Positions 1 through 59,550 of a DNA stretch of 64,000 bases are shown one piece after another. The notes beneath the pieces are model-generated. The model did not search any database, was not told where the DNA came from, and was given only the letters and a program-made list of their open reading frames with translations. Source of the DNA: Phocoena phocoena (lineage: Eukaryota > Chordata > Mammalia > Artiodactyla > Phocoenidae); contig NC_089239.1 in the NCBI RefSeq assembly GCF_963924675.1, forward strand, positions 1,291,001 to 1,355,000. Reading direction: 5' to 3'. How positions within the stretch are numbered: position 1 is the first letter of the stretch; each line of letters starts with the position of its first letter. The translations under genes and the position numbers were made by a program.

Positions 1-999
1 AGACCTGCATTCTGAGATTATATCTTTCTCTAGCAATATTTTTCTAGCAAGATGTCCTCTGCTATCCATCCTTCATCTCTGTTGTGCCCTGGCTACTATG
101 GCAGAAGAGTGCTTCCTCGACATCTTGCCATTTAATTCACCAACAGTAAATGTGATGTGTCAATAGGAATATGAAGTGTTGCTCAAACTCACTAGGAATC
201 AGAGAAGTGCAGATGAGATTTACACTGAGCTATCACCTTAGACACATGAGATTGGCAGACATTTGAAGGTTGCTAACCGAAAGTATCAACCAGGATATGA
301 GGAAAGCAGGAAACTTTCTACACAAGAGGACAGAAATGCCCAATGAAATTAAATACACTGTTGCCTTGTCCTCCAGCACATTCTATTCCTGATGTCTATC
401 CAAGCAAAGTCCTCGTGTCCAGGGCACATGTAGGAAAGTGCTGATTACAGTGGTATTTGTAGTAACAAGGAGTTGGCAGCAACCTAAGTGTCCTTCACCA
501 GTGGTTCCGGTAGGTTAAATGGTTTTAGGTTGGTTTCCTCCAAAACCAGACCCTGAGATGAGGATTTATATTCAAGTAGCTTACTTGGGAGGTGATTTAA
601 GGGAGCACCACCATGGGAGTAGAAAAGTGAGGCAGCGGCTCTTTGAGACTCAAAGAAGGATACATGATCAGCACGTTACCTCAGAGGACAATGGAAGTTT
701 CCTCTCACTGGAGAACATAGGGAGGCAGTGCTGGCCATGACCCCAGAGTAACCCCACCTGAGTAGGTGGAACACAGGGGCATTTATGCACCCACTCACAT
801 TTTCCAGGCTGAGTGGTGTTCCAGGGCCATTAGTTGCAGGTCCATCTGGATGGCCCGAGCACAGGCCAAGAGAAAGCCTTCAGGTAGAGAGTCCCAAGTT
901 CATGCAGCATAATACAGGAGGCATGGACTAGAACTGTTAGTGCCAAAGAGAGAGCACAAGGCAACACTTGTGTCATGAAGATGGTTTTAGAAATGGGGG
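1..999. other. Unique-looking intergenic DNA with a possible old repeat
   Basis: No gene is supported here. About 425-520 has a short stretch (CAACCTAAGTGTCCTTCACC) that recalls the end of L1 ORF2. About 519-780 has a TTACTTGGGAGGTGATTTAAG stretch that recurs in diverged form near 32705 (TTATTTGGGAGGTGATACC), so both may belong to an old interspersed repeat that I cannot name. The 73-codon open frame at 519 has no recognisable domain and is probably incidental. Confidence 0.4.
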
Positions 1000-1262
1000 G
1001 GGGTGTTGTGGGATAAATTAGGAGATTGGAATTGACATATATACACTATTGATACTATGTGTAAAATAGATAACTAATGAGAACCTACTGTATAGCACAG
1101 AGAACTGTACTCAGTGTTCTGTGGTGACCTAAATGAGAAGTAAATCCAAAAAACAGAGGATATATGTATATGTATAACTGCTTCACTTTGCTGTACTGTA
1201 TAAACTAAAACAGTATTATAAAACAACTATACTGCAATAAAAAAAATTTTTTAATTAAAAAA
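1000..1262 (+). mobile_element. Old L1 3' end
   Basis: The text runs through motifs typical of older artiodactyl L1 3'UTRs. These include ACTGTATAGCACAGAGAACT, a GCTGTACTG...AAACTAAAACAGTATTATAAAACAACTATACT block, and a terminal AATAAA followed by an A/T-rich tail ending near 1262. It is 5'-truncated and diverged from the young L1s in the window. It lies just upstream of the L1-A insertion and is independent of it. Confidence 0.65.
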
Positions 1263-1323
1263 GTGTAGAGGGAAGTGCATTAGAAACAGCAAGAGTGATA
1301 GACCTATACCATTAACATAAATT

Positions 1324-1338
1324 AAAAATACATGCAGA
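1324..1338 (+). repeat. Target-site duplication, left copy, of L1-A
   Basis: AAAAATACATGCAGA at 1324-1338 recurs exactly at 8895-8909 after the L1 A-tail. This 15-bp direct repeat fixes both ends of the L1-A insertion and fits L1 target-primed reverse transcription at an A-rich site. Confidence 0.9.
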
Positions 1339-1996
1339 GGGGGGGACCTTGAAGATGGCGGAAGAGTAAGACGCGGAGATCGCCTTCCTCCCCACGGATA
1401 CACCAGAAATACATCCACACGTGGAACAACTCCTACAGAACTCCTACTGAAGGCTGGCAGAAGACCTCAGACCTCCCAAAAGGCAAGAAACTCCCCACGT
1501 ACCTGGGTAGGGCAAAAGAAAAAACAGAGACAAAAGAATAAGGACGGCACCTGCACCAGAGGGATGGAGCTGTGAAGGAGGAAAAGTTTCCACACACTAG
1601 GAAGCCCCTCCGCGGGCGGAGACTGCCGGAGGCGGAGGGGGGAGTTTCGGGAACGCGGAGTAGTGCACAGCGACGGGTGCGGAGGGCAAAGCGGGGAGAT
1701 TCCTGCACAGACGATCGGTGCCGACCAGCACTCACCAACCCGAGAGGCTTGTCTGCTCACCCGCCGGGGCGGGCGGGGCTGCGAGCTGAGGCTCGGGTTT
1801 TGGTTTTGGACGGAGCTCAGGGAGAGGACTGGGGTTGGCGGCTTGAACATAGCCTGAAGGGGTTAGTGCACCACGACTAGCCCGGAGGGAGTTCGGGGAA
1901 AAGCCTGCACCTGCCGAAGAGGCAAGAGACTTTTTCTTCCCTCTTTGTTTCCTGGTGCGCGAGGAGAGGGGTTTAAGAGCGCTGCTTAAAGGATCT

Positions 1997-2097
1997 CCAG
2001 AGACGGGCGCGAGACGCGGCTGAAAGCGCAAACCCCAGAGACGGGCGCGAGCCGCGGCTAAAACCGCGGACCCCAGAGACGGGCGGGAGACGCTAAG
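1997..2097 (+). repeat. Tandem 37-38-bp units in L1-A 5'UTR
   Basis: Three consecutive units begin CCAGAGACGGGCG, at 1997, 2034 and 2072 (the last is partial). L1-E shows only about two diverged units (50709-50773). Each unit contains several CpGs, so copy number may affect promoter strength, as is known for monomeric L1 promoters in rodents. Confidence 0.75.
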
Positions 2098-2584
2098 GCT
2101 GCTGCTGCCGCCACCAAGGGGCCTGTGTGCGAGCACAGGTCACTCTCCACACCCCTCTTCCGCGGAGCCTGTGCAGCCCGCCACTGCCAGGTTCCCGGGA
2201 TCCAGGGACAACTTCCCCGGGAGTACGCACAGCGGGCCTCAGGATGGTGCAACGTCACGCCGGCCTCTGCCGCAACGTCACGCCGCCTCTGCCGCCGCAG
2301 GCCCGCCCGCACGCAGTGCCCCTCCTTCCCCCATCCCCCAACCCCCGACCTGAGTGAGCCGGAGGCCCCGAATCAGCGGCTCCTTTAACCCCGTCCTGTC
2401 TGAGCGAAAAAACAGACGCCCTCCAGCGACCTACACGCAGAGGCAGGGCCAAATCCAAAGCTGAGCTCCTGTGAGCTGTGATAACAAAGAAGAGAAAGGG
2501 AAATCTCTCCCAGCAGCCACAGAAGTAGCGGATTAAAGCTCCACAATCAACTTGATGTACCTGCATCTGTGGAATACCTTAATA

Positions 2585-3135
2585 GACAAGGAATGATCCC
2601 AAATTGAAGAGGTGGAATTTAGGAACAAGATCTATGATTTTTTTCCCTTTTCCTCTTTTTGTGAATGTGTACGTGTACGCTTCTGTGTGAGATCTTGTCT
2701 GTATACTCTTGCTTCCACCATTTGTCCTAGGGCTCTATCCGTCCATGATTTTTTTTTTAAAAATTCTTTTTCTTAATAATTAAGTTTAATTGTAATAACT
2801 TTATTATACTTTACCTTCGTTCTTTCTTTCTTTCCTTCCTTCCTTCCTTCCCTCCTTTAGACAACGAACCACCCCAAATTGAGGAAGTGGTCTCTGGGAG
2901 CAGGATTTATGATTTTTCCCCCTTTACCTCTTTTTGTCAAGGTGTGTGTGTATGCTTCTGTGTAAGATTTTCTCTGTATAGCTTTGCTTCCAACATTTGT
3001 CCTAAGGTTCTATCCGTCCCTTTTTTTTTTTTCTAAATATTTTTTAATTCAATAACTATATTATACTTTGTTTTATTTTTACTGTATCATCTTTCTGTCT
3101 TTTTTCCTTCTTTCCCTCCTTCCTTCCTTCCTCCC
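2585..3135 (+). repeat. Tandem duplication of about 275 bp in L1-A 5'UTR
   Basis: Two direct copies lie head to tail. Copy 1 is 2585-2859 (starting GACAAGGAATGATCCC) and copy 2 starts at 2860 (GACAACGAACCACCCC). Both run through AATTGA(G/A)GA(A/G)GTGG, a CTTCTGTGT stretch, a GTCCTA(G/A)GG(C/T)TCTATCCGTCC stretch and a pyrimidine tract. L1-E has a single copy (from about 51220), so this is an expansion in L1-A or its lineage. Confidence 0.75.
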
Positions 3136-3206
3136 ACCCTCCCTCCCTCCCTCTTTTCTTTCCTTCTTTCTTCCTTCCTTCCTTTCCTCCTTTCCTTCTT
3201 TCTTTA
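3093..3206 (+). repeat. Pyrimidine-rich low-complexity tract
   Basis: A CTTCC/CCCT-type tract on the + strand, about 110 bp with only rare purines, just upstream of the candidate 3' splice site in L1-A. A shorter (TTCC)n-like run is at 2820-2857. The ORF-like translation across it (Phe/Leu/Ser/Pro only) is an artefact. Confidence 0.8.
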
Positions 3207-3752
3207 CTCATACTTCTACTAATTCTCTCTACTTTTTCTCCCTTTTATTCTGAGCCGTGTGGATGAAAGGCTCTTGGTGCTCCAGCCAGGAGTCAGGGCT
3301 CTGCCTCTGAGGTAGGAGAGCCAACTTCAGGACACTGGTCAACAAGAGACCTCCCAGCTCCACATAATATTAAACGGTGGAAATCTCCCAGAGACCTCCA
3401 TCTTAACACCAGCACCCAGCTTCACTCAACGACCAGCAAGCCACAGTGCTGGACAACCTATGCCAAACAACTAGCAAAACAGGAACACAACCCCACCCAT
3501 TAGCAGAGAGGCTGCCTAAAATCATAATAAGGCCACAGACACCCCAAAACACACCACCAGACGTGAACCTGCCCACTAGAGAGACAAGATCCAGCCTCAT
3601 CCAGCACAACACAGGCACTAGTCCCCTCCACCAGGAAGCCTGCACAACCCACTGAAACAACCTTAGCCACTGGAGACAGACATCAAAAACAACGGGAACT
3701 ACGAAAGTGCAACCTGCAAAAAGGAGACCCTAAACACAGTAAGATAAGCAAA

Positions 3753-4646
3753 ATGGGAAGACAGAAAAACACACAGCAGATGAAGGAGCAAGATAAAAAC
3801 CCACCAGACCTAACAAATGAAGAGGAAATAGGCAATCTACCTGAAAAAGAATTCAGAATAATGATAGTAAGGATGATCCGAAATCTTGGAAGTAGAATGG
3901 ACAAAATGCAAGAAACAGTTAACAAGGACCTACAAGAACTAAAGATGAAACAAGCAATGATGAACAGTGCAATAAATGAAATTAAAACCACTCTAGATAG
4001 GATCAATAGCAGAAGAACTGAGGCAGAAGAACGGATAAGTGACCTGGAAGATAAAGTAGTGGAAATAACTACTGCAGAGCAGAATAAAGAAAAAAGAATG
4101 AAAAGAACTGAGGACAGTCTCAGAGACCTCTGGGACAACATGAAACGCACCAACATTCGAATTATAGGGGTTCCAGAAGAAGAAGAAAGAAAGAAAGGGA
4201 CTGAGAAAATATTTGAAGAGATTATAGTTGAAAACTTCCCTAATATGGGAAAGGAAATAGTTAATCAAGTCCAGGAAGCACAGAGAGTCCCATACAGGAT
4301 AAATACAAGGAGAAACACACCAAGACACATATTAATCAAACTGTCAAAAATTAAATACAAAGAAAGCATATTAAAAGCAGCAAGGGAAAAACAACAAATA
4401 ACACACAAGGGAATCCCCATAAGGTTAACAGCTGATCTCTCAGCAGAAACCCTACAAGCCAGAAGGGAGTGGCAGGACATACTGAAAGTGATGAAGGAGA
4501 AAAGCCTGCAACCAAGACTACTCTACCCAGCAAGGATCTCATTCAGATTTGATGGAGAAATTAAAACCTTTACAGACAGGCAAAAGCTGAGAGAGTTCAA
4601 CACCACCAAACCAGCTTTACAACAAATGCTAAAGGAACTTCTCTAG
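3753..4646 (+). CDS. L1 ORF1 protein (intact)
   Basis: This is a 297-codon intact frame encoding the L1 ORF1 RNA-binding chaperone, which trimerises and coats L1 RNA in cytoplasmic particles. A charged, heptad-like Leu/Ile/Met pattern over about residues 30-125 fits the coiled-coil trimerisation domain. NIRIIGVPEEE at 134-144 starts the RRM-like domain. The C-terminal domain follows, including YPARISFRFDG at 258-268, a signature of L1 ORF1p. Length is near the usual for mammalian ORF1p (human about 338, with a longer N-terminus). The ATG at 3753 aligns with the starts in L1-B, L1-D and L1-E. No frameshift or stop interrupts it, whereas those other copies are broken. Confidence 0.93.
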   Translation: MGRQKNTQQMKEQDKNPPDLTNEEEIGNLPEKEFRIMIVRMIRNLGSRMDKMQETVNKDLQELKMKQAMMNSAINEIKTTLDRINSRRTEAEERISDLEDKVVEITTAEQNKEKRMKRTEDSLRDLWDNMKRTNIRIIGVPEEEERKKGTEKIFEEIIVENFPNMGKEIVNQVQEAQRVPYRINTRRNTPRHILIKLSKIKYKESILKAAREKQQITHKGIPIRLTADLSAETLQARREWQDILKVMKEKSLQPRLLYPARISFRFDGEIKTFTDRQKLREFNTTKPALQQMLKELL

Positions 4647-4704
4647 ACACGAAAAACAAGAGAAGGAAACGACCTATAGTAGCGAACCCAAAACAATATA
4701 GAAA

Positions 4705-7700
4705 ATGGGAATAGGAACATACATATCGATAATTACCTTAAATGTAAATGGAATAAATGCTCCCACCAAAAGACACAGATTGGCTGTATGGATACAAAAA
4801 CAAGACCCTTATATATGCTGTCTACAAGAGACCCACTTCAGACCTAGAGACACATACAGACTGAAAGTAAGGGGATGGAAAAAGATATTCCATGCAAATG
4901 GAAACCAAAAGAAAGCTGGAGTAGCAATTCTTATATCAGACAAAATAGACTTTAAAATAAGGACTATTAAAAGGGACAAAGAAGGACACTACATAATGAT
5001 CAAGGGATCGATCCAAGAAGAAGATATAACAATTGTAAATATTTATGCACCCAACATAGGAGCACCTCAATACATAAGGAAAATACTAACAACCATAAAA
5101 GGGGAGATCAACAGTAACACATTCATAGTAGGGGACTTTAACACCCCACTTTCACCCATGGACAGATCATCCAAAATGAAAATAAATAAGGAAACACAAG
5201 CTTTAAATGATACATTAAACAAGATGGACTTAATTGATATTTATAGGACACTCCATCCAAAAACAACAGAATACACATTTTTCTCAAGTGCTCATGGAAC
5301 ATTCTCCAGGAGAGATCATATCTTGGGTCACAAATCAAGCCTTGGTAAATTTAAGAAAACTGAAATTGTATCAAGTACCTTTTCTGACCACAACGCCATG
5401 AGACTAGATATCAATTACAGGAAAAGATCTGTAAAAAATACAAACACATGGAGGCTAAACAATACACTACTTAATAATGAAGTGATCACTGAAGAAATCA
5501 AAGAGGAAATAAAAAAATACCTAGAAACAAATGACAATGGAGACACAACGACCCAAAACCTATGGGATGCAGCAAAAGCAGTTCTAAGGGGGAAGTTTAT
5601 AGCAATACAAGCCCATCTTAAGAAGCAGGAAACATCTCGAATAAACAACCTAACCTTGCACCTCAAGCAATTAGAGAAAGAAGAACAAAAAAACCCCAAA
5701 GCTAGCAGAAGGAAAGAAATCATAAAAATCAGATCAGAAATAAATGAAAAAGAAATGAAGGAGACGATAGCAAAGATCAATAAAACTAAAAGCTGGTTTT
5801 TTGAGAAGATAAACAAAATAGATAAACCGCTAGCCAGACTCATCAAGAAAAAAAGGGAGAAGACTCAAATCAATAGAATTAGAAATGAAAAAGGAGAAGT
5901 AACAACTGACACTTCAGAAATAAAAAAGATCATGAGAGATTACTACAAGCAACTCTATGCCAATAAAATGGACAATCTGGAAGAAATGGACAAATTCTTA
6001 GAAATGCACAATCTGCCAAGACTGAATCAGGAAGAAATAGAAAATATGAACAGACCAATCACAAGCACTGAAATTGAAACTGTGATTAAAAACCTTCCAA
6101 CAAACAAAAGCCCAGGACCACATGGCTTCACAGGTGAATTCTATCAACCGTTTAGAGAAGAGCTAACACCTATCCTTCTCGAACTCTTCCAAAATATAGC
6201 AGAGGGAGGAACACTCCCAAATTCCTTCTACGAGGCCACCATCACCTTGATACCAAAACCAGACAAGGATGTCACAAAGAAAGAAAACGACAGGCCAATA
6301 TCACTGATGAACATAGATGCAAAAATCCTCAACAAAATACTAGCAAACAGAATCCAACAGCACATTAAAAGGATCATACACCATGATCAAGTGGGGTTTA
6401 TTCCAGGAATGCAAGGATTCTTCAATATACGCAAAGCTATCAATGTGATAAACCATATTAACAAATTGAAGGAGAAAAATCATATGATCATCTCAATAGA
6501 TGCAGAGAAAGCTTTCGACAAAATTCAACACCCACTTATGATAAAAACCCTGCAGAAAGTAGGCATAGAGGGAACTTTCCTCAACATAATAAAGGCCATA
6601 TATGACAAGCCCACAGCAAACATCATCCTCAATGGTGAAAAACTGAAAGCATTTCCACTAAGATCAGGAACAAGACAAGGTTGCCCACTCTCACCACTCT
6701 TATTCAACATAGTTTTGGAAGTTTTAGCCACAGCAATCAGAGAAGAAAAGGAAATAAAAGGAATCCAAATCGGAAAAGAAGAAGTAAAGCTGTCACTGTT
6801 TGCAGATGACATGATACTATACATAGAGAATCCTAAAGATGCTACCAGAAAACTACTAGAGCTAATCAATGAATTTGGTAAAATAGCAGGATACAAAATT
6901 AATGCACAGAAATCTCTGGCATTCCTATATACTAATGATGAAAAATCTGAAAGTGAAATCAAGAAAACACTCCCATTTACCATTGCAAGAAAAAGAATAA
7001 AATATCTAGGAATAAACCTACCTAAGGAGACAAAAGACCTGTATGCAGAAAATTATAAGACACTGATGAAAGAAATTAAAGATGATACAAATAGATGGAG
7101 AGATATACCATGTTCTTGGATGGGAAGAATCAACATTGTGAAAATGACTCTACTACCCAAAGCAATCTACAGATTCAATGCAATCCCTATCAAACTACCA
7201 CTGGCATTTTTCACAGAACTAGAACAAAAATTTCGCAATTTGTATGGAAACACAAAAGACCCCGAATAGCGAAAGCAATCTTGAGAACGAAAAAAGGAGC
7301 TGGAGGAATCAGGCTCCCTGACTTCAGACTATATTACAAAGCAACAGTAATCAAGACAGTATGGTACTGGCACAAAAACAGAAAGATAGATCAGTGGAAC
7401 AGGATAGAAAGCCCAGAGATAAATGCACGCACATATGGACACCTTATCTTTGATAAAGGTGGCAGAAATGTACAGTGGAGAAAGGACAGCCTCTTCAATA
7501 AATGGTGCTGGGAAAACTGGACAGGTACATGTAAAAGTATGAGATTAGATCACTCCCTAACACCATACACAAAAATAAGCTCAAAATGGATTAAAGACCT
7601 AAATGTAAGGCCAGAAACTATCAAACTCTTAGAAGAAAACATAGGAAGAACACTCTATGACATAAATCACAGCAAGATCCTTTCTGACCCACCTCCTAGA

Positions 7701-8522
7701 GTAATGGAAATAAAAACAAAAATAAACAAATGGGACCTAATGAAACTTCAAAGCTTTTGCACAGCAAAGGAAACCATAACCAAGACCAAAAGACAACCCT
7801 CAGAATTGGAGAAAACATTTGCAAATGAAGCAACTGACAAAGGATTAATCGCCAAAATTTACAAGCAGCTCATGCAGCTCAATAACAAAAAAACAAACAA
7901 CCCCATCCAAAAATGGGCAGAAGACCTAAATAGACATTTCTCCAAAGAAGATATACAGACTGCCAACAAACACATGAAAGAATGCTCAACATCATTAATC
8001 ATTAGAGAAATGCAAATCAAAACTACAATGAGATATCATCTCACACCAGTCAGAATGGCCATCATCAAAAAATCTATAAACAATAAATGCTGGAGAGGGT
8101 GTGGAGAAAAGGGGACACTCTTGCACTGCTGGTGGGAATGTGAAATGGTTCAGCCACTATGGAGAACAGTATGGAGGTTCCTCAAAAAACTACAAATAGA
8201 ATTACCATATGACCCAGCAATCCCACTACTGGGCATATACCCTGAGAAAACCAAAATTCAAAAAGAGTCATGTACCAAAATGTTCATTGCAGCTCTATTT
8301 ACAATAGCCCGGAGATGGAAAGAACCTAAGCGCCCATCATCGGATGAATGGATAAAGAAGATGTGGCACATATACACAATGGAATATTACTCAGCCTTAA
8401 AAAGAAATGAAATTGAGCTATTTGTAATGAGATGGATAGACCTAGAGTCTGTCATACAGAGTGAAGTAAGTCAGAAAGAAAAAGACAAATACCGTATGCT
8501 AACACATATATATGGAATTTAA
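4705..8522 (+). pseudogene. L1 ORF2 (endonuclease-reverse transcriptase) with one frameshift
   Basis: The region spans 1272 codons plus a stop if read through, matching the usual ORF2p length (human 1275). The N-terminal APE-type endonuclease shows LNVNG (residues 12-16), QETH (41-44), GDFNTPL and [10 protein letters not shown]. The reverse transcriptase shows [23 protein letters not shown] and the catalytic FADD at residues 699-702, at the same index as in human ORF2p. The C-terminal cysteine motif CWRGCG...HCWWEC is near 8090-8140. One A is missing from the run at 7226-7230 (five As; L1-E has six at the matching place). Frame 1 therefore stops at 7269 after 854 codons, and the rest continues in another frame to 8522. 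The endonuclease and RT are retained; the C-terminal domain is lost from the in-frame product. Confidence 0.93.
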
Positions 8523-8894
8523 GGGGAAAAAATGTCATGAAGAACCTAGGGGTAAGACAGGAATAAAGACGCAGACCTACTGGAGAACGGACTTGAGGAT
8601 ATGGGGAGGGGGAAGGGTGAGTTTTGACAGGGCGAGAGAGAGTCATGGACATATACACACTAACAAACGTAGTAAGGTAGATAGCTGGGGGGAAGCAGCC
8701 GCAAGGCACAGGGATATTAGCTCGGTGCTTTGTGACAGCCTGGAAGGGTGGGATGGGGAGAGTGGGAGGGAGGGAGATGCAAGAGGGAAGACATATGGGA
8801 ACATATGTATATGTATAGCTGATTCACTTTGTTATAAAGCAGAAACTAACACACCATTGTAAAGCAATTATACCCCAATAAAGATGTTTAAAAA

Positions 8895-8909
8895 AAAAAT
8901 ACATGCAGA
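8895..8909 (+). repeat. Target-site duplication, right copy, of L1-A
   Basis: Exact repeat of 1324-1338, directly after the A-tail of L1-A. Confidence 0.9.
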
Positions 8910-24690: not shown

Positions 24691-25523
24691 CAAACCTAAA
24701 GCACCATCTTCCTTCCCTCTCATTGGCCTTGTTCAGCTCTGCTGCTATCTTGCAGCATGGTTAGGTCGTGTATGGTACTGTTGGACAGAAAGGATTTTCT
24801 CACATTCTGAAAAGACAATGCCAAGGGAGGAGATGTAGGCAAGAGATACATTCCAGATCAAAATGTGGCTCAAGAGAGGACCTTCAAGATGGTGGAGGAC
24901 TCAAATATGGAGGCCACCTCCCCACAAATACATCAAAAATATATCTATATGTGGAACAACTCCTACAGAACACCTACTGAACACTGACAGAAGATCTCAG
25001 ACTTCCCAAAAGGCAAGGAAATCCCCACCTACCTGGCCGTGTGGCTGACAGGGACTTGGTGCTCCAGCAGGATGTCAGGCCTGAGCCTCTGAGGTGGGAG
25101 AGACAAGTTCAGGACGTGGGACCAGCAGAGACATCCTGACCATACGTAATATCAATCACTGAGAGTTCCCCAAAGATCTCCGTCTCAACACTAAGAAACA
25201 ACTCCACTCAATGACCAGCAAGCTGCAGTGCTGGACACCCCATGACAAACAACCAGCAAGGAACACAAACACATCCATTAGCAGAGAGACTGCCTAAAAT
25301 CATAAGAAGTTCACAGACACCCCAAAACACACCACCAGACATAGTCCTGCCCACCAGACAGACAAGATGCAGCCTCATCCACCAAAACACAGGCACCAGT
25401 CCCCTCCAGTGGGAAGCCTACACAACCCACTGAACTAACCTTACCCACTGGGGGCAGACAAAAAGACCACAGGAACTACAAGCCTGCAGTCTGCACAAAG
25501 GAATACACAATATGTTAAGCAAA

Positions 25524-26412
25524 ATGAGAAGAGAAATATGCAGCAGATGAAAGAGCAAGGTAAAAACCCACCAGACCAAACAAATGGAGAGGAAATAGGA
25601 AATCTACCTGAAAAAGAATTCAGAGTAATGATAGTAAAGATGATCCAAAATCTTGGAAATAGAATGGAGAAAACACAAGAAACGTTTAACAAGGACCTAG
25701 AAGAACTAAAGAGCAAGCAAACAATGATGAACAACACAATAAATGAAATGAAAAATCCTCTAGAAGGAATCAATAGCAGGATAAATAAAGCAGAAGAACG
25801 GATAAGTGACTTGGAAGATAAAATAGTGGAAATAACTACCACAGAGAAGAATAAAGTAAAACGAATGAAAAAAATTGAGGACAGTATCACAGACCTCAGG
25901 GACAACATTAAACGCCAAAACATTCGTATTATAGGGGTCCCAGAAGAAGAAGAGAAACAGAAAGGAACTAAGAAAATTTTTGAAGAGATTATAGTTGAAA
26001 ACTTCCCTAATATGGGAAAGGAAATAGTTAATCAAGTCCAGGAAGCACAGAGAGTCCCTTACAGGATAAATCCAAGGAGAAACATGCCAAGACACATATT
26101 AATCAAACTATCTAAAATTAAATAAAAAGAAAACATATTAAAAGCAACAAGGGAAAAACAATAAATAACACACAAGTGAATGCCCATAATGTCAACAGCT
26201 GATCTTTCAGCAGAAACTTAGCAAGCCAGAAGAGAGTGGCAGGACATATTTAAAGTGATGAAGGAGAAAAACCACAACCAAGGTTACTGTAACCGCAAAG
26301 ATCTCCTTCAGATTTGATGGAGAAATTAAAACCTTTATAGATAAGCAAAAGCTGTGAGAGTTCAGCACCATAAAACCAGCTTTACAACAAATGCTAAAGG
26401 AACTTCTCTAGG
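25524..26412 (+). pseudogene. L1-B ORF1, nonsense mutation
   Basis: The start at 25524 aligns with L1-A ORF1. The frame keeps the coiled-coil and the RRM start (QNIRIIGVPEEEE). It ends at TAA 26123-26125, where L1-A has TAC, so the C-terminal RNA-binding domain is lost. The remaining sequence continues recognisably to about 26412 with further lesions. Confidence 0.85.
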
Positions 26413-26469
26413 CAAGAAACACAAGAGAAGGAAAAGACCTACAATAACAAACCCAAAACAATTAAGAAA

Positions 26470-29400
26470 ATGGGAATAGGAACATACATATCGATAATTA
26501 CCTTAAATGTAAATGGATTAAATGCTCCCACCAAAAGATACAGACTGGCTGAATGGATACAAAAACAAGACACGTATATATGCTGTCTACAAGAGACCCA
26601 CTTCAGACCTAAGGACACATACAGACTGAAAGTGGGGGGATGGAAAAAGATATTCCATGAAAATGGAAATCAAAAGAAAGATGGTGTAGCAATTCTCATA
26701 TCAGACAAAATAGACTTTAAAATAAAGACTATAACAAGAGACAAAGAAGGACACTACATAATGATCAAGGGATCAGTCCAAGAAAAATATATAACAATTG
26801 TATATATTTATGCACCCAACATAAGAGCACTTCAATGAATAAGGCAAATGCTAAGAGCCATAAAAGGGGAAATCGACAGTAGCAAAATAGTAGGGTACTT
26901 TAACACCCCACTGTCACCAATGGACAGATCAATGAAAATAAAATTAAATAAGGAAACACAGCTTTAAATGACACATTAAACGAGATGGACTTAATTGGTA
27001 TTTATAGGGCATTCCATCAAGAAACAACGGAATACATTTTATTCTGATGTGCTCATGGAACATTCTCCAGGGTAGATCATAACTTGGGTCACAAATCAAG
27101 CCTTGGTAAATTTAAGAAAATTGAAATTGTATCAAGTATCTTTTATGACCACAATGCTATGAGACTAGATATCAATTACAGAAAAAAAAAACTGTAAAAA
27201 ATATAAACACATGGAGGTTAAATAATAAGCTACTAAATAACCAAGAGATTATTGAAGAAATCAAAGAGGAAATCAAAAAATACCTAGAAACAAATGGCAC
27301 TGAAAACATGACAAGCCAAAATCAATGGGATGCAGCAAAAGCAGTTCTAAGAGGGCAGTTTATACCAATACAATCCTACCTCCAGGAGCAAGAAAAATCT
27401 CAAATCAACAGCCTAAACTTACACCTAAAGCAACTAAAGAAATAAGAAAAATAAAACCCAAAGTGAGCAGAAGGAAAGAAATCATAAAGATCAGATCAGA
27501 AATAAATGAAACAGAAATGAAGGAAATGGTAGTAAAGATCAGTAAAACTAAAAGTTGGTTCTTTGAGAAGATAAACAAAATTGATAGGCCATTGGCCAAA
27601 CTCATCAAGAAAAAAAGGGAGAAGTCTGAAATCAACAGAATTAGAAATGAAAAAGGAGAAGTAAAAACTGACACAGCAGAAATACAAAGGATCATGAGAG
27701 ATTACTACAAGCAACTCTATGCCAATAAAATGGACAACCTGGAAGAAATGGACAAATTCTTAGAAAGGTATAAACTTTACAGACTGAACAGGAAGGAAGA
27801 GAAAATATAAGCAGATCAATCACAAGCACTGAAATTGAAACTGAAATTAAAAATCTTCCAGTAAACAGGGCTTCCCTGGTGACGCAGTGGTTGAGAGTCC
27901 ACCTGCTGATGCAGGGAACACGGGTTCATGCCCGGTCCGGGAAGATCCCACATGCTGCGGAGTGGCTGGACCCATGAGCCATGGCCACTGAGCCTGCATG
28001 TCCGGAGCCTGTGCTCCACAGCGGGAGAGACCACAACAGCGAGAGGCCCGCGTACCACCAAAAAAAAAAAAAAAATCTTCCAGTAAACAAAGGCCCAAGT
28101 ACAGATGGATTCACAGACAAATTCTATCAAACATTTAGAGAAGAGCTAACACCTATCCTTCTCAAAGTCTTCCAAAATATAACAGAGGGAGGAACACTCC
28201 CAAACTCATTCTATGAGGCCAAAATCACCCTGATACCAAAACCAAACAAAGATGTGACAAAAAAAGAAAGCTATGGCCAATATCACTGATGAACATAAAT
28301 GCAAAAATCCTCAACAAAATAATAGCAAACAGAATTCAGCCACACATTAAAAAATATCAAACACCATGATCAAATGGGGTTTATCCCAGGAATGCAAGTA
28401 TTCTTCAATATATGTAAATCAATCAATGTGATTTATTATTAACAAATTGAAGGAGAAAAACCATATGATCATCTCAATAGATGCAGAAATATCTTTTGAC
28501 AAAAGTCAACACCTATTTATGATAAAAACTCTCCAGAAAGTAAGCATAGAAGGAATCTACTCAACATAATAAAGTCCATATATGACAAACCCACAGCCAA
28601 CATCATTCTCAATGGTGAGAAACTGAAACCATTTCCACTAAGATCAGGAAGAAGGCAAGGTTGCCCACTCTCACCACTATTATTCAACATAGTTTTGGAA
28701 GTTTTAGCTACAGCAAGCAGAGAAGAAAAGGAAGTAAAAGGATTCCAAATCAGAAAAGAAGTAAATCTGTCACTGTTTTCAGATGCCATGATACTCTACA
28801 TAGAGAATCCTAAAGATGCTATCAGAAAACTACTAGAGCTAATCAATGAATTTGGTAAAGTAGCAGGATACAAAATTAATGCACAGAAATCTCTTGCATT
28901 CCTATACACTAATGGTGAAAAATCTGAAAGAGAATCTAAGGAAACACTCCGTTTACCATTGCAACAAAAAGAATAAAATATCTAGGAATAAGACTACCTA
29001 AAGAGACAAAAGACCTGTATGCAGAAAACTATAAGACACTGGTGAAAGAAATTAAAGATGATACAAAAAGATGAAAAGATATACCATGCTTTTGGATTGG
29101 AAGAATCAACATTGTGAAAATGACTCTAATAACCAAAGTAATCTACAGATTCAATGCAATCCCAATCAAACTACCAATGGCATTTTTCACAGAACTAGAA
29201 CAAAAAAAGTTTACAATTTGTATGGAAAAACAAAAGACCCTGAACAGCCAAAGAAAATTTGTGAAAGAAAAACGGAGCTGGATGAGTCTCCGTGACTTCA
29301 GACTATATTACTACAGTAATCAAGACAGTATGGTACTGGCAGAAAAACAAAAATATAGATCCCTGGAACAGGAGAGAAAGCCAGGAGATAAACTCACACA

Positions 29401-30480
29401 CATATGGTCAGCTCTTTGATACAGGGGGCAAGAGTATACAATGGAGAAAAGACACCCACTTCAATAAGTGGTGCTGGGAAAACTGGACAGCTACATGTAA
29501 AAGAATGAAATTAGAACCCCCCTTAATACTATATACAAAAATAAACTACAAATGGATTAAAGACCTAAATGTAAGGCCAGACACTATTAAACTCTTAGAG
29601 GAAAACATAGGCAGAATACTCTATGACATAAATCACAGCAAGATCCTTTTTGACCCACCTCCTAGAGAAATGGAAATAAAAACAAAAATAAACAAATAGG
29701 ACCTAATGAAACTTAAAAGCTTTTGCACAGAAAACCATAAACAAGACCAAAAGACAACCCTCAGAATGGGAGAAAATATTTGCAAATGAAGAAACTGACA
29801 AAGGGTTAATCTCCAAAATTTACAAGCAGCTCAATATCAAAAAAACAAAGAACCCAATCCAAAATTCGCCGGAAGATCTAAACAGACATTTCTCCAAAGA
29901 AAATTTACAGATTGCCAGCAAACACATGAAAGAATGCTCAACATCATTAATCATTAGAGAAATGCAAATCAAAACTACAATGAGATATCATCTCACACTG
30001 GTCAGAATGGCCATTATCAAAAAAACTACAAACAATAAATGCTGGAGAGGGTGTGGACAAAAGGGAACTCTCTTGCACTGTTGGTGGGAATGTAAATTGA
30101 TAGAGTCACTATGGAGAACAGTATGGAGGTTCCTTAAAAATCTAAAAATAGATCTACCATACGACCCAGCAATCCCACTCCTGGGCATATACCCTGAGAA
30201 AGCCATAATTCAAAAAGAGTCATGTACCACAATGTTCATTGCAGCTCTATTTACAATAACCAGAACATGGAAGCACCCTAAGCGTCCATCAACAGATGAA
30301 TGGGTAAAGAAGATGTGTCACATATACACAATGCCATATTACTCAGCCATAAAATGAAACGAAATTGAGTTATTTGTAGTAAGGTGCATGGACCTAGAGT
30401 CAGTCATACAGAGTGAAATTAGTCAGGAAGAGAAAAACAAATACCTTATGCTAACACATATATATGGGATCCAAAAATAA
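26470..30480 (+). pseudogene. L1-B ORF2, multiply broken
   Basis: It opens with the endonuclease N-terminus (122 codons to a stop at 26836-26838). Homology continues through endonuclease, RT and the cysteine-rich end with many frameshifts and stops. The RT catalytic site reads LFSDAM instead of LFADDM (about 28770-28790), a loss of a catalytic aspartate. A SINE at 27868-28070 splits it. Confidence 0.88.
27868..28070 (+). mobile_element. CHR-type SINE within L1-B ORF2
   Basis: The sense-strand SINE begins GGGCTTCCCTGGTGACGCAG and ends in an A-run. The 19-bp duplication AAAAATCTTCCAGTAAACA at 27849-27867 and 28071-28089 is exact, so insertion postdates L1-B. Confidence 0.94.
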
Positions 30481-30840
30481 AGTCCTGAAGAACCTAGGGG
30501 CAAGATGGGAATAAAGATGCAGACCTAGTAAAGAATGGACTTGAGGACACAGGGAGGGAGAAGGGTAAGCTGGGACGAATTGAGAGAGTGGCATGGACAT
30601 ATATACAGTACCAAATGTAAAACTGAAAGCCTGTGGGAAGCAGCCGCATCACACAGGGAGATCAGCTCAGTGCTTTTAGACCACCTAGAGAGGTGGGATA
30701 GGGCGGGTGGGAGGGAGGGAGATGCAAGAGGGAAGAGATATGAGCATATACGTATATATATAACTGATTCACTTTGTTATAAAGCAGAAACTAACACACC
30801 ATTGTAAAGCAATAATACTTCAATAATGATGTTAAGAAAA

Positions 30841-30898
30841 AGTGATGTTAAAAATTATTAATTAAATACTGCTATAGCTGCTCCCCAATTAAAAAAAT
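30841..30898 (+). other. Possible L1 3' transduction
   Basis: Between the first A-rich end of L1-B (about 30835-30841) and the right flanking repeat lies a non-L1 segment. It contains TGCTATAGCTGCTCCCC and ends in a second A-run. This arrangement is what read-through past a weak L1 poly(A) signal followed by retrotransposition would leave. Confidence 0.45.
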
Positions 30899-30910
30899 AT
30901 ATGGCTCAAG

Positions 30911-44188: not shown

Positions 44189-44437
44189 GTGGGGGCGGTA
44201 TAGTTGTTTTACAATGCTATGTTAGTTTCTACTGTACAGTGAAGTGGAGTTCTCTGTGCTTTACAGCAGGTTCTCATTAGTTATCTATTTTATACATATT
44301 AGTGTATATATGTCAATCCCAATCTCCCAATTCATCCCACCCCTCCTTTCCTCACTTGGTGTCCATACGTTTGTTCTCTATGTCTGTGTCTCTATTTCTG
44401 CCCTGCTAACAGGTATATCTGTACCTTTTTAAGAGAT

Positions 44438-47400: not shown

Positions 47401-48196
47401 GTCTCCAGGTATATTTTGATTTCCTCTTTGATTTCTTCAGAGAACTCTTGGTTATCTAGTAGCATATTGTTTAACCTCCATGTGTTTGTGGGTTTTACTA
47501 GTTTTTTCCTGTAATTGATTTCTAATCTCATATTATTGTGGTCAGAAAAGATGCTTGATATGATTTCAATTTTCTTAAATTCAGTGAGACTTGTTTTGTG
47601 ACCCAAGATGTGATCTATCCTGGAGAAATCTTCATATGCACTTGAGAGGAAAGTGTATTCTATAAATATCAATTAAATCTATCTGGTCTGTTGTGTCACT
47701 TAAAGCTTGTGTTTCCTTATTAATTTTCTGTCTGGATGATCTGCCCATTGGTGTAAGTGATGTGTTAAAGTCCCCCACTATTATTGTATTACTGTCAATT
47801 TCATCTTTTATAGCTGTTAGCATTTGCCTTATGTATGGAGGTACTCTGATATTGGGGGCATATAGATTTATAATTGTTCTATCTTCTTGGATTGATCCCT
47901 TGATCTTTATGTAGTGTCCTTCCTTGTCTCTTGTAACATTCTTTATTTTAAAGTCTATTTTATCTGATATGAGTATTGCTACTCCAGCTTTCTTTTGATT
48001 TCCTTTTACATGGAATATGTTCTTCCATCCCCTCACTTTTAGTCTGTATGTGTACCTATGTCTGAAGTGGGTCTCTTGTAGACAGCGTATATATGTGTCT
48101 TGTTTTTGTATCCATTCAGCCAGTCTGTGTCTTTTGGTTGGAGCATTCAATCCATTCACATTTAAGGTAATTATTGGTATATATGTTCCTATTATG
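44438..48196 (-). pseudogene. L1-D ORF2, multiply broken
   Basis: On the minus strand the endonuclease (about 48160-47220), RT (about 46960-45900) and cysteine-rich C-terminus (about 44985-44770, CWRPCG...HCWWEC) appear in order. Frames are separated by stops and frameshifts. The start codon region is altered (ATAATAGGAACATA... instead of an ATG-containing start). Confidence 0.88.
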
Positions 48197-48257
48197 ATTT
48201 TCTTAATTGTTTTGGATTTGTTTTTGTAGGTCTTTTCCTTCTGTTGTGTCTCCTGCC

Positions 48258-49440: not shown

Positions 49441-52081
49441 TTTGGTTCACTTACTGTGTTTGGGGTCTCCTTTCTGCAGGCTGCAGAGTCATAATTCCTG
49501 TTACTACTGGTGTCTGCCCCCAGGGGGTGTTGTTGGCTTGTGTAGACTTTCTGGTGGGGAGGGACTAGTGCCTGCATTCTGATCGGCTGTGCTGGATCTT
49601 GTCCCTCTGATGGGCAAAGCCATATCCAGTGGTGTGTTTTGGGGTATCTGTGAACTTAGTATGACTTCAGGCAGCCTGTCTGCTAATGGGTTGTGTTGTG
49701 CGTCTTGCTAGCTGTTTGGTGTGAGGCATCCAGCACTGGAACTTGTTGGCCATAGGGTGGAGCCAGGTCTTGGTGTTGTGGAGGAGATCTCCAGGAGAGC
49801 TCTCACTGATTAATATTCATTGGTTCTGTGAGTTCTCTGGTAGTCCAACATTCTGGACTTGGCACTCCCACCTCAAAGTCTCAAGCCAGACACCTGGCCA
49901 GAGTACCAAGAACCTGCAAGGTGCATGGTGCAGAAGAAAAGGGGGAAAAAATGAAAGAAAGAAAATGAACAGACAGCAAAAACCCAAACAAATGGTGAAA
50001 GCAAAACCAAGCAGACAAAAACACATACACACAAAAAAGAGAAAAAAAGAAGAAATCTGGGGGAGCTTCAAGATGGCGGAAGACTAAGACGTGGAGATCT
50101 CCTTCCTCCTCAAAAATACATCTACATGTGGAACAACTCCTACAGAGCACCTATTGAAGGCTGGCAGAAGACCTCAGACCTCGCAAAAGGCAAGAAACTC
50201 CCCACGTACCTGCGTAGGGCAAAAGAAAAAAGAATAAACAGAGACAAAAGAATAGGGACGGGACCTGCACCAGTGGGAGGGGGCTGTGAAGGAGGAAACG
50301 TTTCCACACACTAGGAAGCCCCTTTGTGGGCAGAGACTGTGGGTGGCAGAGGGGGGAAGCTTCAGAGCCATGGAGGAGAGCACAGCCACAGGGTTGCAGA
50401 GGGCAAAGTGGAGAGATTCCCACACAGTGGATCGATGCCGAACAGCACTCACCAGCCCGAGAGGATTGTCTGCTCACCCACCAGCAGGCGGGGGCTGAGA
50501 GCTGAGGCTTGGGCTTTGGAGGTCAGATCCCAGGGAGAGGACTGAGGTTAGCTGCGTGAACACAGCCTGAAGGGGGTTAGTGCACCACAGCTAGCTGGAA
50601 GGGAGGCAGGGAAAAGTTTGGAGCTGACAAAGAGGCAAGAGACTTTTTCTTGCCTCATTGTTTTCTGGTGCACAAGGAAAGGGGATAAAGAGCGCCACTT
50701 AAAGGAACTCCAGAGATGGGCGTGAGCTGTGGCTATCAGTGTAGACCCCAGAGACGGACATGAGATGCTAAGGCTGCTGCTGCAGCCACCAAAAATCCTG
50801 TGTGCAAGCACAGATCACTATCAAAACCTCCCCTCACAGGAGTCAGTGCAGCATGCCACTGCCAGGGTCCTGTGATCCAGGACAACTTAACCGGGAGAAC
50901 ACACAGTATGCATCAGGTTGTTGTAATGTCACGCCAGTCTCTGCCACTGCAGGCTTGCCCTGCACTCCGTATCCCATCCTCCCCCTGCCCTGAGTAAGCC
51001 AGAGCTCCCAAATCAGTTCCTCCTTTAACCCCTTCTTCTCTGAGCAAATAACAGACACCCTCAGGTGACCTACACACAGAGGCAGGTCCAAATCCAAAGC
51101 GGAACGCCAGGAGTTGTATGAGCAAAGAGAAAGGGAAATCTCTCCTAGCAGCCTCAGGAGCAGTGGATTAAATCTCCACAATCAACTTGATGTTACCTGC
51201 ATCTGTGGAATACCTGAATAGACAACGAATCTTCCTAAATTGAGGAAGTGGACTTTGGGAGCAATGATATATATTTCCCTTTTTCTCTTTTTGTGGGTGT
51301 CTATGGGTATGCTTCTGTGTGTGATTTTGTCTGTATTGTTTTGCTTTTACCATTTGCCCTAGGGTTCTATCTGTCCATTATTGTTTTTAGTTTTTAGCAC
51401 TTGTTATCATTGGTGGATTTGTTTTTTGTTTTGGTTACTCTCTTCTTTCCTTCTATCTTTCTTTTTCTTTTACTAATTAAAAACTTATTTTTTGATAATT
51501 ATTTTTTATTTTAATAACTATTTTATATCATTTTATTTTATCTTCTTCTTTCTTTCCTTCTTTTTTTCCTCCCTTTTATTCTGAGCTGTGTGGATGACAG
51601 GTTCTTGGTGCTCCAACCAGGCGACAGGGCTGTACCTCTGAGGTGGGACAGCCAAGTACAGGACACTGTTCCACAAGAGACCTCTCAGTGCAATGAAATA
51701 TCAAATGGCAAAAACCTCCCAGAGATCTCCATCTCAAAGTCAAGACCCAGATCCACTCAATGACAAGCAAGCTACAGAGCTGGACACCCTATGCCAAACA
51801 ACTAGTAGGACAGGAAAATAATGACATCCAATAACAGAGAGGCTACCTAAAGCCATAATAAGGCCACAGACACCACAAAACACATCATCACGTGTGGCCC
51901 TACCCACCAGAAGAAAAGATTCAGCTTCATCCACCAGAACACAGGCACTAGTCTCCTCCACCAGGAAGCCTACACAACCCACTTAACCAACCTTAGACAC
52001 TAGGGACAGACACCAAAAAAAATGGGAACCAGAAACTGCAGCCTGCAAAAAGGAGATCCCAAACATAGTAAGTTAAACAAA

Positions 52082-52961: not shown

Positions 52962-53018
52962 GCAGGAAACACAAGAGAAGGAAAAGACCAACAATAAAAA
53001 ACCAAAACAATTTTAAAA

Positions 53019-56822: not shown

Positions 56823-57233
56823 AAAGAAAAAGAAAACAATGGTCATGAAGAACCTAGGGGTAAGATGGGAATAAAGACAGAGACCTACTAGAGGATGGAC
56901 TTGAGGACATGGGGAGGGGGAAGTGTAAGCTGGGACAAAGTGAGAGAGTGACATGGACATATATACACTACCAAACATAAAATAGATAGTTAGTGGGAAG
57001 CGGTTGCATAGCATAGGGAGATCAGCTCGGTGCTTTGTGACCACCTAGAGGGGTGGGATAGGGAGGGTGGGAGGGAGGGAGATGCAAGATGGAAGAGAAA
57101 TGGGAACATATGTATGTGCATAACAGATTCACTTTGTTATAAAGCAGAAACTAACACACCATTGTAAAGCAATTATACTCCAAAAAAGATGTTAAAAATA
57201 AATAAAATAAAATATTTAAAAACTGAAGTAATC

Positions 57234-57447
57234 TGAGCTTCCCTGGTGGCACAGTGGTTGCGAGTCCATCTGCCGATGCAGGGGACGCGGGTTCGTGCCC
57301 TAGTCTGGGAGGGTCTTGCATGCCGCAGAGCAGCTGGGTTCATGGGCCGTGGCTGCTGGGCCTGTGCCTCTGGAGCCTGTGCTCCACGGTGGGAGAGGCC
57401 ATGGCAGTGACAGGCCCATGTACTGCAAAAAAAAAAAAAAAAAAAAA
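57234..57447 (+). mobile_element. CHR-type SINE at the L1-E / L1-D border
   Basis: Sense SINE (GAGCTTCCCTGGTGGCACAG) with a long A-tail (about 57426-57447). The duplication GAAGTAATC at 57225-57233 and 57448-57456 shows that it inserted into the right target copy of L1-E. Confidence 0.92.
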
Positions 57448-59175
57448 GAAGTAATCAACCATAGAAATAAACCAACCCAAAAATGAAATAAACACGATAA
57501 AAACAGAAGAAAGTAGAAAACAAAAGGAAAAAACACAAAACAACAAAAAAGTAAAGTCAAAACATAGAAAATATAGTTTAAAAAAGATAAAAGCAAAGAA
57601 AAAAACAGAAACAAGGAAAAAACACAATATAACAAAAAATAAAGTAGAAATGGAAAAATATATTAAAAATAAAAACATAAAAAGAGAAGAAAGGAAAAAA
57701 TTAAAAGAATAATTTATAAAAAGAACAACAGCATATCAAAATGAAACAAAAAAATAATAGCAATAATAATAATATTTTCCTGGGCCCTCAGCTGTCAGTG
57801 TCCTTGCTTCCACGGTGAGCCGCCCCCAATCCCTGCCTACCCAGAAAGTCCTCCCATACCTCTCGGTAGGTCTCTAGACCTTCTGTGGGCACTTTGGGGC
57901 AGCTCAGACTCTGACCTGGCCTTACTTCCACGTGTACTTGCCCCCAGAGTCCACAGTTGCCCCCCAAATCCACAGCCTCAATTGTAGGAACACTCATTGT
58001 CTACTCAGATACTCCACAGATGCAGAGTTTACTAAGCCAATTGCAGGGACTTAATCAGCTGCTCTTGCAGCTGCACAGAGAGATTTCCCTTCCTTTTGTT
58101 TGGTTGCACTGCCCCTGGAGTCCAGCTTTGGCTTTGGCCATGCCTCTGCATGTGGGCCACCCTCAGGCATCTCATCCTCACTCAGGCAAGAGTGGCTGAA
58201 AGCAGCGGCTGTTTAGGGTTCACTTGCTCTCTCAGGCCAGGAAGAGGGAGGGAAAAGGCAGTCACAATTGGGATGTGCAGGGAGTGCCTGCAGCGGTAGA
58301 GGCCAGCTGGAAGTTGCAACAGCCTGGGGTGTGCCGTGCACGCTGCTGGGGAAGTTGGCCCCAGATCACGGGACCCTTGGGAGTGGCTGGCTGCACAGGC
58401 TCCTGGGAAGGTGTGGGCAGTGACCTGCGCTTGCTCACGGGACCCTCGGTGGCAGGAGCAGGAGTGGTAAAGGAGACACCTCTGGGGTCCGAGGTAGCAG
58501 CCGTGGCTCATGCTCACCCCTGGATCTCATGTAGGTCTCTGCTGTCTGTGAGCACGTGGAGAAAGAAGCTCCTATGTGGACCTGCCCCTCTCCTGCCACA
58601 CCCCCAACAATGGTCCCTTGCCTGTCTGACAGGCAGAGGCTTCTTCCCCGACTCCCTCAGTTGTGGCACACTAGCCCCCTCAGACTGTCTTCACCCAGTC
58701 AACCCCAGTCCTCTACCTGGGGTCTGACCTCCAAAGCCTGAGCCTCAGCACCCAGCCCCCATCCAACCCAGTGGGCAGACTAGCGTCATGGGCTGGGAAG
58801 TGCTGGTTGGCACCAATCCTCTTTGCAGGATTCTCTCTGTTTTGCCTTCCACATCCCTGTTGCTGCACTCTCCTCTGAGGTTCTGAAGCTCCCCCCACCC
58901 TTCTCTGCCAGTGAGGGGGCTCCCTAGTCTGAAGAAACTTTTCCTCCTTCACAACTCCATCTCAGAGGTGCAGGTTCACCCCCCTCAATTCCTTTGTCTT
59001 ATTTTTTTTCTTTTGCCCTACCCAGTTACATGGAGATTTTCTTGCCTTTTTGGAAGTCTGAGGTCTTCTGCCAGCATTCAGTAGGTGTTCTGTAAGAGTT
59101 GTTCCACATGTAGATGTATTTTTGATGTATCTGTAGGGAGAAGGTGATCTCCTCTTCCATCTTGAAGGTTCCCCC

Positions 59176-59550
59176 CCTTTTTGTTCTGATTATAACTAGC
59201 ATGCATGGCTGTTTTGGAATCTATCATGATGAATTGTTTATTTGCTTGCTTTAGTTAATCTCTGACTAGTTTGTGAATGCTTTTAGTTATTCCACATTTG
59301 TGTTTAGCCTTTGCTTGATAAAAGGATATAGAGATGAATACACTTTTGTAAAATTAGTGCACAATTGGATGTGCTTAAGCTATAAAAACAACACTGTACT
59401 CAGACATGCAGATAATAAGGAAGATGGGGTGCTTCAGAAAATGGTTACTTTAGTGTGGCTAGTGCAGAGCATCATGATGGAAGATGGAGCTGGAAAGAAA
59501 ATCTAGAAAAGGACTGTATATTATGTTGAATTCCTGAGTTTGAACTTTTT
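59176..59550. other. Unique DNA, no gene seen
   Basis: No repeat recognised. The frame at 59273 has no features. Confidence 0.4.

What the first reader, a model, noticed from the sequence alone, without database searches (positions are those of the whole stretch)
1507..3254. L1 5'UTR contains a removable intron: L1-B is a retrotransposed spliced L1
L1-A has a 1748-nt interval starting GTAGGG and ending in a pyrimidine tract plus TTCTGAG, with a CTACTAAT branch-like site 32 nt before the end. L1-B lacks exactly this interval (junction 25036/25037), while sequence on both sides is collinear. L1-D and L1-E keep the interval. A random deletion would rarely fall on GT and AG next to a pyrimidine tract. 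In humans, spliced integrated L1 elements (SpIREs) are known to arise from 5'UTR splicing; this would be an independent artiodactyl/cetacean case that removes most of the GC-rich promoter.
Basis: partly seen in the sequence, partly recalled or inferred. Interest (0 to 1): 0.78.

Follow-up and report, generated by a model that had tools for sequence, protein, structure and literature searches.

The report
Recurrent spliced LINE-1 copies, probable whale
Some LINE-1 jumping-gene copies in this probable whale or dolphin genome lack exactly the same stretch near their start, most likely because the cell spliced it out of the RNA before that RNA was copied back into DNA, as is known for human LINE-1.

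Summary
L1-A 1507-3254 starts GT and ends AG; L1-B lacks exactly that interval, with one base of ambiguity. The window's own genome (2.51 Gb) holds 89 exact copies of the junction 15-mer, L1-B included, against 0 for the reversed pattern; 88 of 89 have exon 1 upstream. Intact acceptor words number 3335 and intact donor words 6914. On trees of the sequence after the junction, junction copies are not one clade (p-AU 0.0017); among older rows they interleave with interval-bearing ones like shuffled labels (11 changes, mean 11.15). Loss without regain needs 27 events, 8 after collapsing weak branches. Three junction copies have the young L1-A-type exon 2 start. A second junction, readable as GC-AG, recurs in 10 copies. 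Best reading: recurrent 5'UTR splicing followed by retrotransposition, i.e. SpIREs outside primates, on different splice sites. No RNA data were available.

The parts
1341..1506 (+). L1-A 5'UTR 'exon 1', ends ...TACCTGG
   Evidence: sequence; 34 of 35 junction loci with an exon 1 match begin within 16 nt of this 5' end, and 19 of 19 further loci within 10 nt
1507..3254 (+). L1-A interval absent from L1-B: inferred intron, GTAGGG...TTCTGAG
   Evidence: first part 1507-2500 has 63.5% G+C, CpG o/e 0.78
3007..3254 (+). AG-free pyrimidine-rich tract ending in the inferred acceptor AG (3253-3254)
   Evidence: 248 nt from the previous AG, longest on the + strand of the window; 91% and 93% pyrimidine over the last 100 and 150 nt before the AG
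3216..3223 (+). CTACTAAT branch-like site, L1-A type
   Evidence: no CTAAT in the last 60 nt of 5 of 5 L1-B-type acceptors
3255..3752 (+). L1-A 5'UTR 'exon 2' up to ORF1
3753..4646 (+). L1-A ORF1 frame, 297 codons
24866..24874 (+). left copy of L1-B target-site duplication (exact core TGGCTCAAG; longer imperfect match AAAATGTGGCTCAAG)
24878..25036 (+). L1-B exon 1
25036..25037 (+). L1-B splice-like junction ACCTGG|CCGTGTGG
   Evidence: 89 exact genome copies of the 15-mer, this one included
25037..30847 (+). L1-B exon 2, degraded ORFs and 3' end, with a SINE-like insert at about 27861-28071
30902..30910 (+). right copy of L1-B target-site duplication core
50214..51585 (+). same interval retained in L1-E (1372 nt; base before GT is C)
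57957..59176 (-). L1-D 5' end with the donor GG|GTAGGG (interval retained, interrupted by L1-E)
49750..49964 (-). L1-D interval end and exon 2; TTCTGCAC in place of TTCTGAG
1483..1484 (+). GC of the inferred alternative donor AAAAG|GCAAGA, 24 nt upstream of the GT donor (second junction)
   Evidence: sequence; junction
2583..3129 (+). tandem duplication in the L1-A interval (2583-2857 / 2858-3129, 77%); places TTTAG|ACAACGAA (2860/2861) behind a pyrimidine tract
   Evidence: acceptor of the second junction

Best explanation
L1-B descends from an L1 RNA that began at the normal L1 start. The nuclear spliceosome joined exon 1 (ending TACCTGG) to exon 2 (starting CCGTGTGG), removing an interval like 1507-3254. 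The RNA then kept its ORFs and poly(A) tail and was reverse-transcribed at a new site by the usual L1 route. The same splice recurred over the life of this L1 lineage, so it is a repeated by-product and not a one-off. The acceptor is the first AG after a long AG-free pyrimidine tract. A second, rarer splice joins a GC-type donor (AAAAG|GCAAGA), 24 nt upstream of the GT donor, to ACAACG after TTTAG. Shown: exact boundaries, recurrence, independent sites where flanks were compared, mixture with interval-bearing copies, several origins. Inferred: that spliceosomal splicing of L1 RNA is the cause; that the removed G+C-rich part is the promoter and most products were dead ends.
For: Junction 15-mer: 89 exact hits including L1-B, reversed control 0 and 0; all 89 read, 88 with exon 1 upstream. 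Junction-spanning probe: 40 of 40 scored matches (of 2007 candidates, L1-B itself among them) are contiguous across the junction. Flanks of 35 loci: 2 of 595 pairs share a stretch. 34 of 35 and 19 of 19 start within 16 nt of the L1 5' end. Interval-bearing copies of L1-B's own type exist: 12 of 70 unspliced acceptors typed. Tree of 89 rows: 27 losses if loss cannot be reversed, 8 after collapsing branches under 95% support. Labels among 60 older rows change 11 times against a shuffled mean of 11.15 (59% of 2000 shuffles at or below); one clade of the 48 older junction rows rejected, p-AU 0.0017. L014, 97.9% identical to L1-A after the junction, carries it while L1-A has the interval. Second junction, GC-AG: 10 of 12 hits are L1. 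L1-B has a target-site duplication.
Against: No RNA read spans the junction; nothing here shows splicing directly. Donor and acceptor are mediocre by a recalled base-frequency table (L1-A ranks 26 of 191 and 48 of 630; L1-E 108 of 202 and 55 of 618), and a CAG ending 15 nt further on in L1-B and L1-E was not used. Backbone support in the older part of the tree is low, so the number of origins is uncertain, and weak resolution also makes labels look mixed. The tested clade was defined after a first tree had been seen. Among junction copies, target-site duplications were sought only for L1-B and L014; none of 8 nt or more was found for L014 in the stretch searched. Most junction copies fall in one age class, as a short source lineage would also give.
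Confidence: 0.92

Rival explanations
1. A short-5'UTR L1 subfamily: splicing happened once or a few times, and the resulting short element kept a usable promoter in exon 1 and multiplied as a lineage of its own beside long elements, with occasional recombination mixing the two.
For: By the bases after the junction, 83-86 of the 89 junction copies are of older type and 3 of L1-A type. Against an estimated 570 unspliced L1-B-type acceptors (12 of 70 typed, scaled to 3335; my arithmetic) the junction form would be about 13% of that age class, well above the human 1.8% (PMC5860796).
Against: One clade of the 48 older junction rows is rejected, p-AU 0.0017; labels interleave like shuffled ones; the L1-A-type copies and the second junction are separate events.
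Confidence: 0.06
2. Ordinary genomic deletion after insertion, in L1-B and separately in the other copies.
For: Internal deletions occur in L1: L080, one of 30 unspliced-acceptor loci, has another deletion, not GT-AG, starting 2 nt before the donor.
Against: It would have to give the same base-exact junction in 88 copies read with exon 1, whose flanks differ in the 35 compared; a random interval allows GT-AG in 0.35% of cases.
Confidence: 0.01
3. Reverse transcriptase jumping between the two points during integration.
For: One shared base (G) at the main junction; two (AG) at the second.
Against: One base of homology is unlikely to fix the same join in many separate events; the join falls on GT-AG at the first AG after the longest AG-free + strand tract.
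Confidence: 0.01

Closest known systems
Human SpIREs (spliced integrated retrotransposed elements), mainly SpIRE97/622, PMC5860796 (sections 7, 8, 16, part of 17 seen)
   Same: Intra-5'UTR GT-AG interval missing from otherwise full L1 copies; one main donor near the 5' end and more than one acceptor; same junction in many insertions; removed part covers G+C-rich promoter-like sequence; a low-percentage share of copies overall.
   Different: Different host and leader; donor about 166 nt from the start against 97/98 in human; interval about 1.4-1.7 kb against about 0.5-0.8 kb for the human intra-5'UTR classes; acceptor GAG after a very long AG-free pyrimidine tract; a second junction of GC-AG form; estimated share about 13% in one older type and about 0.1% in the young types.
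Mouse L1 sense-strand splice sites and exonization (PMC2176070, passages seen)
   Same: Functional splice sites inside a non-primate L1.
   Different: The passages concern L1 exons in host transcripts, not retrotransposed spliced L1 copies.
Processed pseudogenes (recalled)
   Same: Intron-less DNA copy of a spliced RNA made by L1 machinery, with target-site duplication.
   Different: Here the spliced RNA is the L1's own, and the intron lies in a non-coding leader.

Membership tests
SpIRE (intra-5'UTR class) | L1 copy lacks a 5'UTR interval bounded exactly by a splice donor and acceptor | tested here: met
   GT-AG at 1507/3254; L1-B joined base-exactly
SpIRE (intra-5'UTR class) | Same junction in several independent insertions | tested here: met
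   89 exact hits, 88 with exon 1 upstream; flanks distinct in the 35 compared
SpIRE (intra-5'UTR class) | Interval-bearing L1 of the same subfamily exists as source | tested here: met
   12 of 70 typed unspliced acceptors are L1-B type; L1-A itself for the A-type junction copies
SpIRE (intra-5'UTR class) | L1 insertion hallmarks: target-site duplication, poly(A), endonuclease site | tested here: inconclusive
   L1-B: 9-nt exact core, longer imperfect duplication, A-rich tail; L014: no duplication of 8 nt or more found; other junction copies not examined
SpIRE (intra-5'UTR class) | Spliced L1 RNA detectable from source elements | not testable with these tools
   no RNA reads available
SpIRE (intra-5'UTR class) | Reduced promoter activity of the spliced leader | not testable with these tools
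   would need reporter assays
SpIRE (intra-5'UTR class) | Separate splicing products, not one self-propagating subfamily | tested here: met
   one clade rejected, interleaving like shuffled labels; backbone support is low, so the strength of this is limited

The most novel reading that the evidence does not exclude
In an older phase of this L1 lineage roughly one in eight of the copies counted was a spliced product, and splicing at the main junction then fell about a hundredfold in the young types. The fall coincides with a C-to-A change at acceptor position -8 and with a tandem duplication that made a new competing acceptor, itself used in a second, GC-AG spliced class. L1 5'UTR evolution here would be partly an escape from host splicing.
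Probability: 0.3. Interest if true: 0.75.

Novelty: new member of a known kind. Interest (0 to 1): 0.58.

Why it matters
It indicates that 5'UTR splicing followed by retrotransposition is not a quirk of primate L1: a different L1 leader in another mammalian order did the same on other splice sites. That gives a second, independent system for asking why L1 keeps splice sites that cripple its offspring, and whether L1 subfamilies replace one another partly by escaping splicing. The apparent drop between the older and the young types makes this testable with reporters. It also warns that 'short 5'UTR' copies should not be taken for separate subfamilies in repeat libraries.

Tried and rejected
Searches for relatives outside the genome led nowhere: L1 5'UTR patterns gave 0 and then 2 hits in viral contigs and 2 in genome contigs (both Pelagibacteraceae records); I took these as chance matches from their origin and did not align them. 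The plasmid and phage collections gave no match.

Site-strength scoring with a recalled mammalian splice-site table did not single out the observed sites; I did not use it as support.

The branch site CTACTAAT was rejected as a needed part. 'The interval is a late insertion' was rejected: in the 3' half of the element L1-D (and in one run a copy at 15.7-17.6 kb) lies outside (A,E),B with 95-98% support, and L1-A, L1-E and, as far as it is preserved, L1-D have the interval. In the 5' half the same tree was unresolved (46-49%).

Literature: I saw the listings; searches returned no paper. Those listings show at most 20 papers each, so they are partial. In them I saw no report of spliced integrated L1 copies outside humans; a key paper (Belancio 2006, named) is not held. 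This is therefore not a claim of first report. PMC5860796: abstract, sections 7, 8, 16, first part of 17, and passages. PMC13174262, PMC5860798, PMC2176070, PMC5872511: passages only.

Full report
WHAT IS THERE. The window holds four L1 copies with a 5' end: L1-A 1341-8897 (+), L1-B about 24878-30847 (+), L1-D 59176 to 44262 (-) and L1-E 50059 to about 57226 (+), the last inserted into L1-D. L1-A's interval 1507-3254 begins GTAGGG and ends TTCTGAG. L1-B goes from ACCTGG (to 25036) straight to CCGTGTGG (from 25037), with collinear sequence on both sides. The boundary can slide by one base and only one placement gives GT-AG. Of 444,000 intervals with ends in the same regions 1545 (0.35%) allow GT-AG. 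The acceptor AG ends the longest AG-free stretch on the window's + strand (248 nt), the L1-E equivalent the second longest (188 nt).

POLARITY. In the 3' half of the element the tree is ((A,E)95-96,B)98 with L1-D outside, so the absence in L1-B is a loss; the 5' half was unresolved there. L1-B has a target-site duplication (exact core TGGCTCAAG at 24866 and 30902, longer imperfect match) and starts at the normal L1 start, so it is a 5'-complete insertion.

RECURRENCE. The window lies in G000:C21 of a 2.51 Gb assembly. A 131-base probe across the junction had 2007 candidates, 40 of them scored; all 40, L1-B included, matched contiguously across it at 88-100%. The 15-mer TACCTGGCCGTGTGG occurs 89 times including L1-B, its reversal 0 times. 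I read all 89: 88 have exon 1 upstream within 5 edits over 23 bases; the other (L041) has only the last 7 bases. The intact acceptor 15-mer occurs 3335 times and the intact donor 15-mer 6914 times, with 1 reversed-control hit each. The donor word has no CpG and should survive better; the acceptor count includes 5'-truncated copies and at least one (L125) without a pyrimidine tract before the AG. Junction copies are about 2.6% of junction plus acceptor hits; human SpIRE97/622 is 116 of 6609, about 1.8% (PMC5860796 section 7). Upstream 200-nt flanks of 35 loci are distinct; 2 of 595 pairs share a stretch. Of 35 loci with an exon 1 match, 34 start within 16 nt of the L1 5' end, the exception L014 at 88; 19 of 19 further loci start within 10 nt.

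ONE EVENT OR MANY. Seventy unspliced acceptors, all from contig C1 in listing order, were typed: 12 of L1-B's type and 58 of other, mostly L1-A/E, types. Of the twelve, L113 was typed by TTGACAGG with C at -8 and L130 by C at -8 alone. Trees used 1.5 kb after the junction. In the final tree 89 rows entered (49 junction, 40 interval-bearing). Left out beforehand were L005 (L1-B itself), L008 (same place as L038) and L031 (its exon 1 match lay elsewhere in the locus, though one search shows exon 1 at its junction too). Six further junction rows (L015, L018, L020, L033, L036, L040) were dropped for too short a match. If the interval can be lost but not regained, the tree needs 27 losses; after collapsing branches under 70, 80, 90 and 95% support, 21, 19, 11 and 8. 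An earlier 72-row tree, from which I had removed more rows, gave 15, and 5 after collapsing at 95, with p-AU 0.0015 against one clade. Among 60 older rows (48 junction, 12 not) the label changes 11 times; shuffled labels give 11.15 on average. Forcing the 48 into one clade costs 162 log units, p-AU 0.0017; this group was fixed after a first tree had been seen. L014 is 97.9% identical to L1-A over 1471 positions yet carries the junction. L158 and L165 have the same L1-A-type exon 2 start, ATGAAAGG, and were typed by those bases only; three more (L018, L053, L177) read ATGACAGG.

SPLICE SITES. Of 10 interval-bearing loci whose donor could be read, 8 keep GG|GT (by eye). By a recalled frequency table donor and acceptor are unremarkable (L1-A ranks 26 of 191 and 48 of 630; L1-E 108 of 202 and 55 of 618). 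All 30 unspliced acceptors have 99-794 nt without AG before the AG. Acceptor base -8 is C in 4 of those 5 and A in 21 of the 25 others (by eye); one search shows the same trend, but there two rows were typed by this very base.

A SECOND JUNCTION. Locus L090 joins CCCAAAAG to ACAACGAA. Read as splicing this is a GC-AG intron: donor AAAAG|GCAAGA at 1483, acceptor TTTAG at 2860, the top-scoring acceptor of L1-A. The join can slide by two bases (AG), and only one placement is splice-like. The 16-mer occurs 12 times; the reversed, low-complexity control 23 times, so the count alone says nothing. Reading the contexts, 10 of 12 are L1 exon 1 joined there, with differing bases after the join. In L1-A and six young copies (L070, L082, L085, L088, L089, L092) this acceptor sits behind a pyrimidine tract made by a tandem duplication; in L1-E and several others the same AG follows CTGAAT or ATGAAT. 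L080 has yet another deletion that is not GT-AG: ordinary deletions also occur.

HOW IT MOST LIKELY WORKS. L1 RNA starts at the L1 5' end; U1 pairs with GG|GTAGGG, U2AF binds the long pyrimidine tract, and the first AG after it is used; the leader loses its G+C-rich part (1507-2500: 63.5% G+C, CpG o/e 0.78); the RNA still carries its ORFs and tail and is copied into a new site. Shown are the DNA products and their recurrence; the RNA steps are inferred from general splicing and L1 biology (recalled).

HOW COMMON. Scaling 12 of 70 to 3335 gives about 570 unspliced L1-B-type acceptors against 83-86 junction copies: about 13%, roughly 8-20% from sampling of the 70 alone. For the younger types about 2760 against 3-6: 0.1-0.2%. 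These are my arithmetic; the sample comes from one contig and the counts from exact words. I offer the drop as an observation to test, not as a result.

HOST. No call named it.

NOVELTY. The kind is known (human SpIREs). Here it appears in a probable non-primate host, on a different leader, with other site positions and a GC-AG class: a new member of that kind. A high-share phase followed by decline, if confirmed, would make it a new variant.

Noticed in passing
L090; C1:43522860 (L140) and nine other places (L141-L144, L146-L149, L151): Second recurrent L1 leader junction CCCAAAAG|ACAACGAA, readable as a GC-AG splice; 10 of 12 genome hits are L1.
   Followed up: partly
2583-3129: Tandem duplication in the L1-A leader, also in six young copies, which puts an AG behind a pyrimidine tract.
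   Followed up: partly
L064, L065, L067, L071, L075, L079: Six young L1 copies have AG-free stretches of 628-794 nt before the acceptor, against 99-168 nt in five L1-B-type copies.
   Followed up: no
L041, about position 1500 of 3015: Unrelated sequence followed by only TACCTGG and then L1 exon 2: a 5' truncation 7 nt before the junction, chance, or a host exon spliced to L1.
   Followed up: no
L125 (C1:66696842): TTCTGAG|CCGTGTGG preceded by sequence that is not the usual pyrimidine tract.
   Followed up: no
30848-30901: About 50 nt of apparently non-L1 sequence between L1-B's 3' end and its right target-site duplication, ending in an A-run: possible 3' transduction that could identify the source element.
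   Followed up: no
50059-57226 inside 44262-59176: L1-E is nested in L1-D's leader, with an imperfect duplication read by eye (GAAGAAATCTG / GAAGTAATCTG).
   Followed up: partly
4705-8522: L1-A ORF1 frame is open (297 codons) but ORF2 is split into two overlapping frames (854 and 475 codons), so this copy is probably inactive.
   Followed up: no
L092 and other rows next to L1-A in the trees: Some L1 copies have terminal branches of about 0.005 or less, i.e. look recent, while a passage in PMC5872511 says L1 is apparently extinct in some cetacean lineages.
   Followed up: no
L080, about 815: Another large leader deletion starting 2 nt before the donor but not GT-AG: an ordinary deletion or template jump.
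   Followed up: partly
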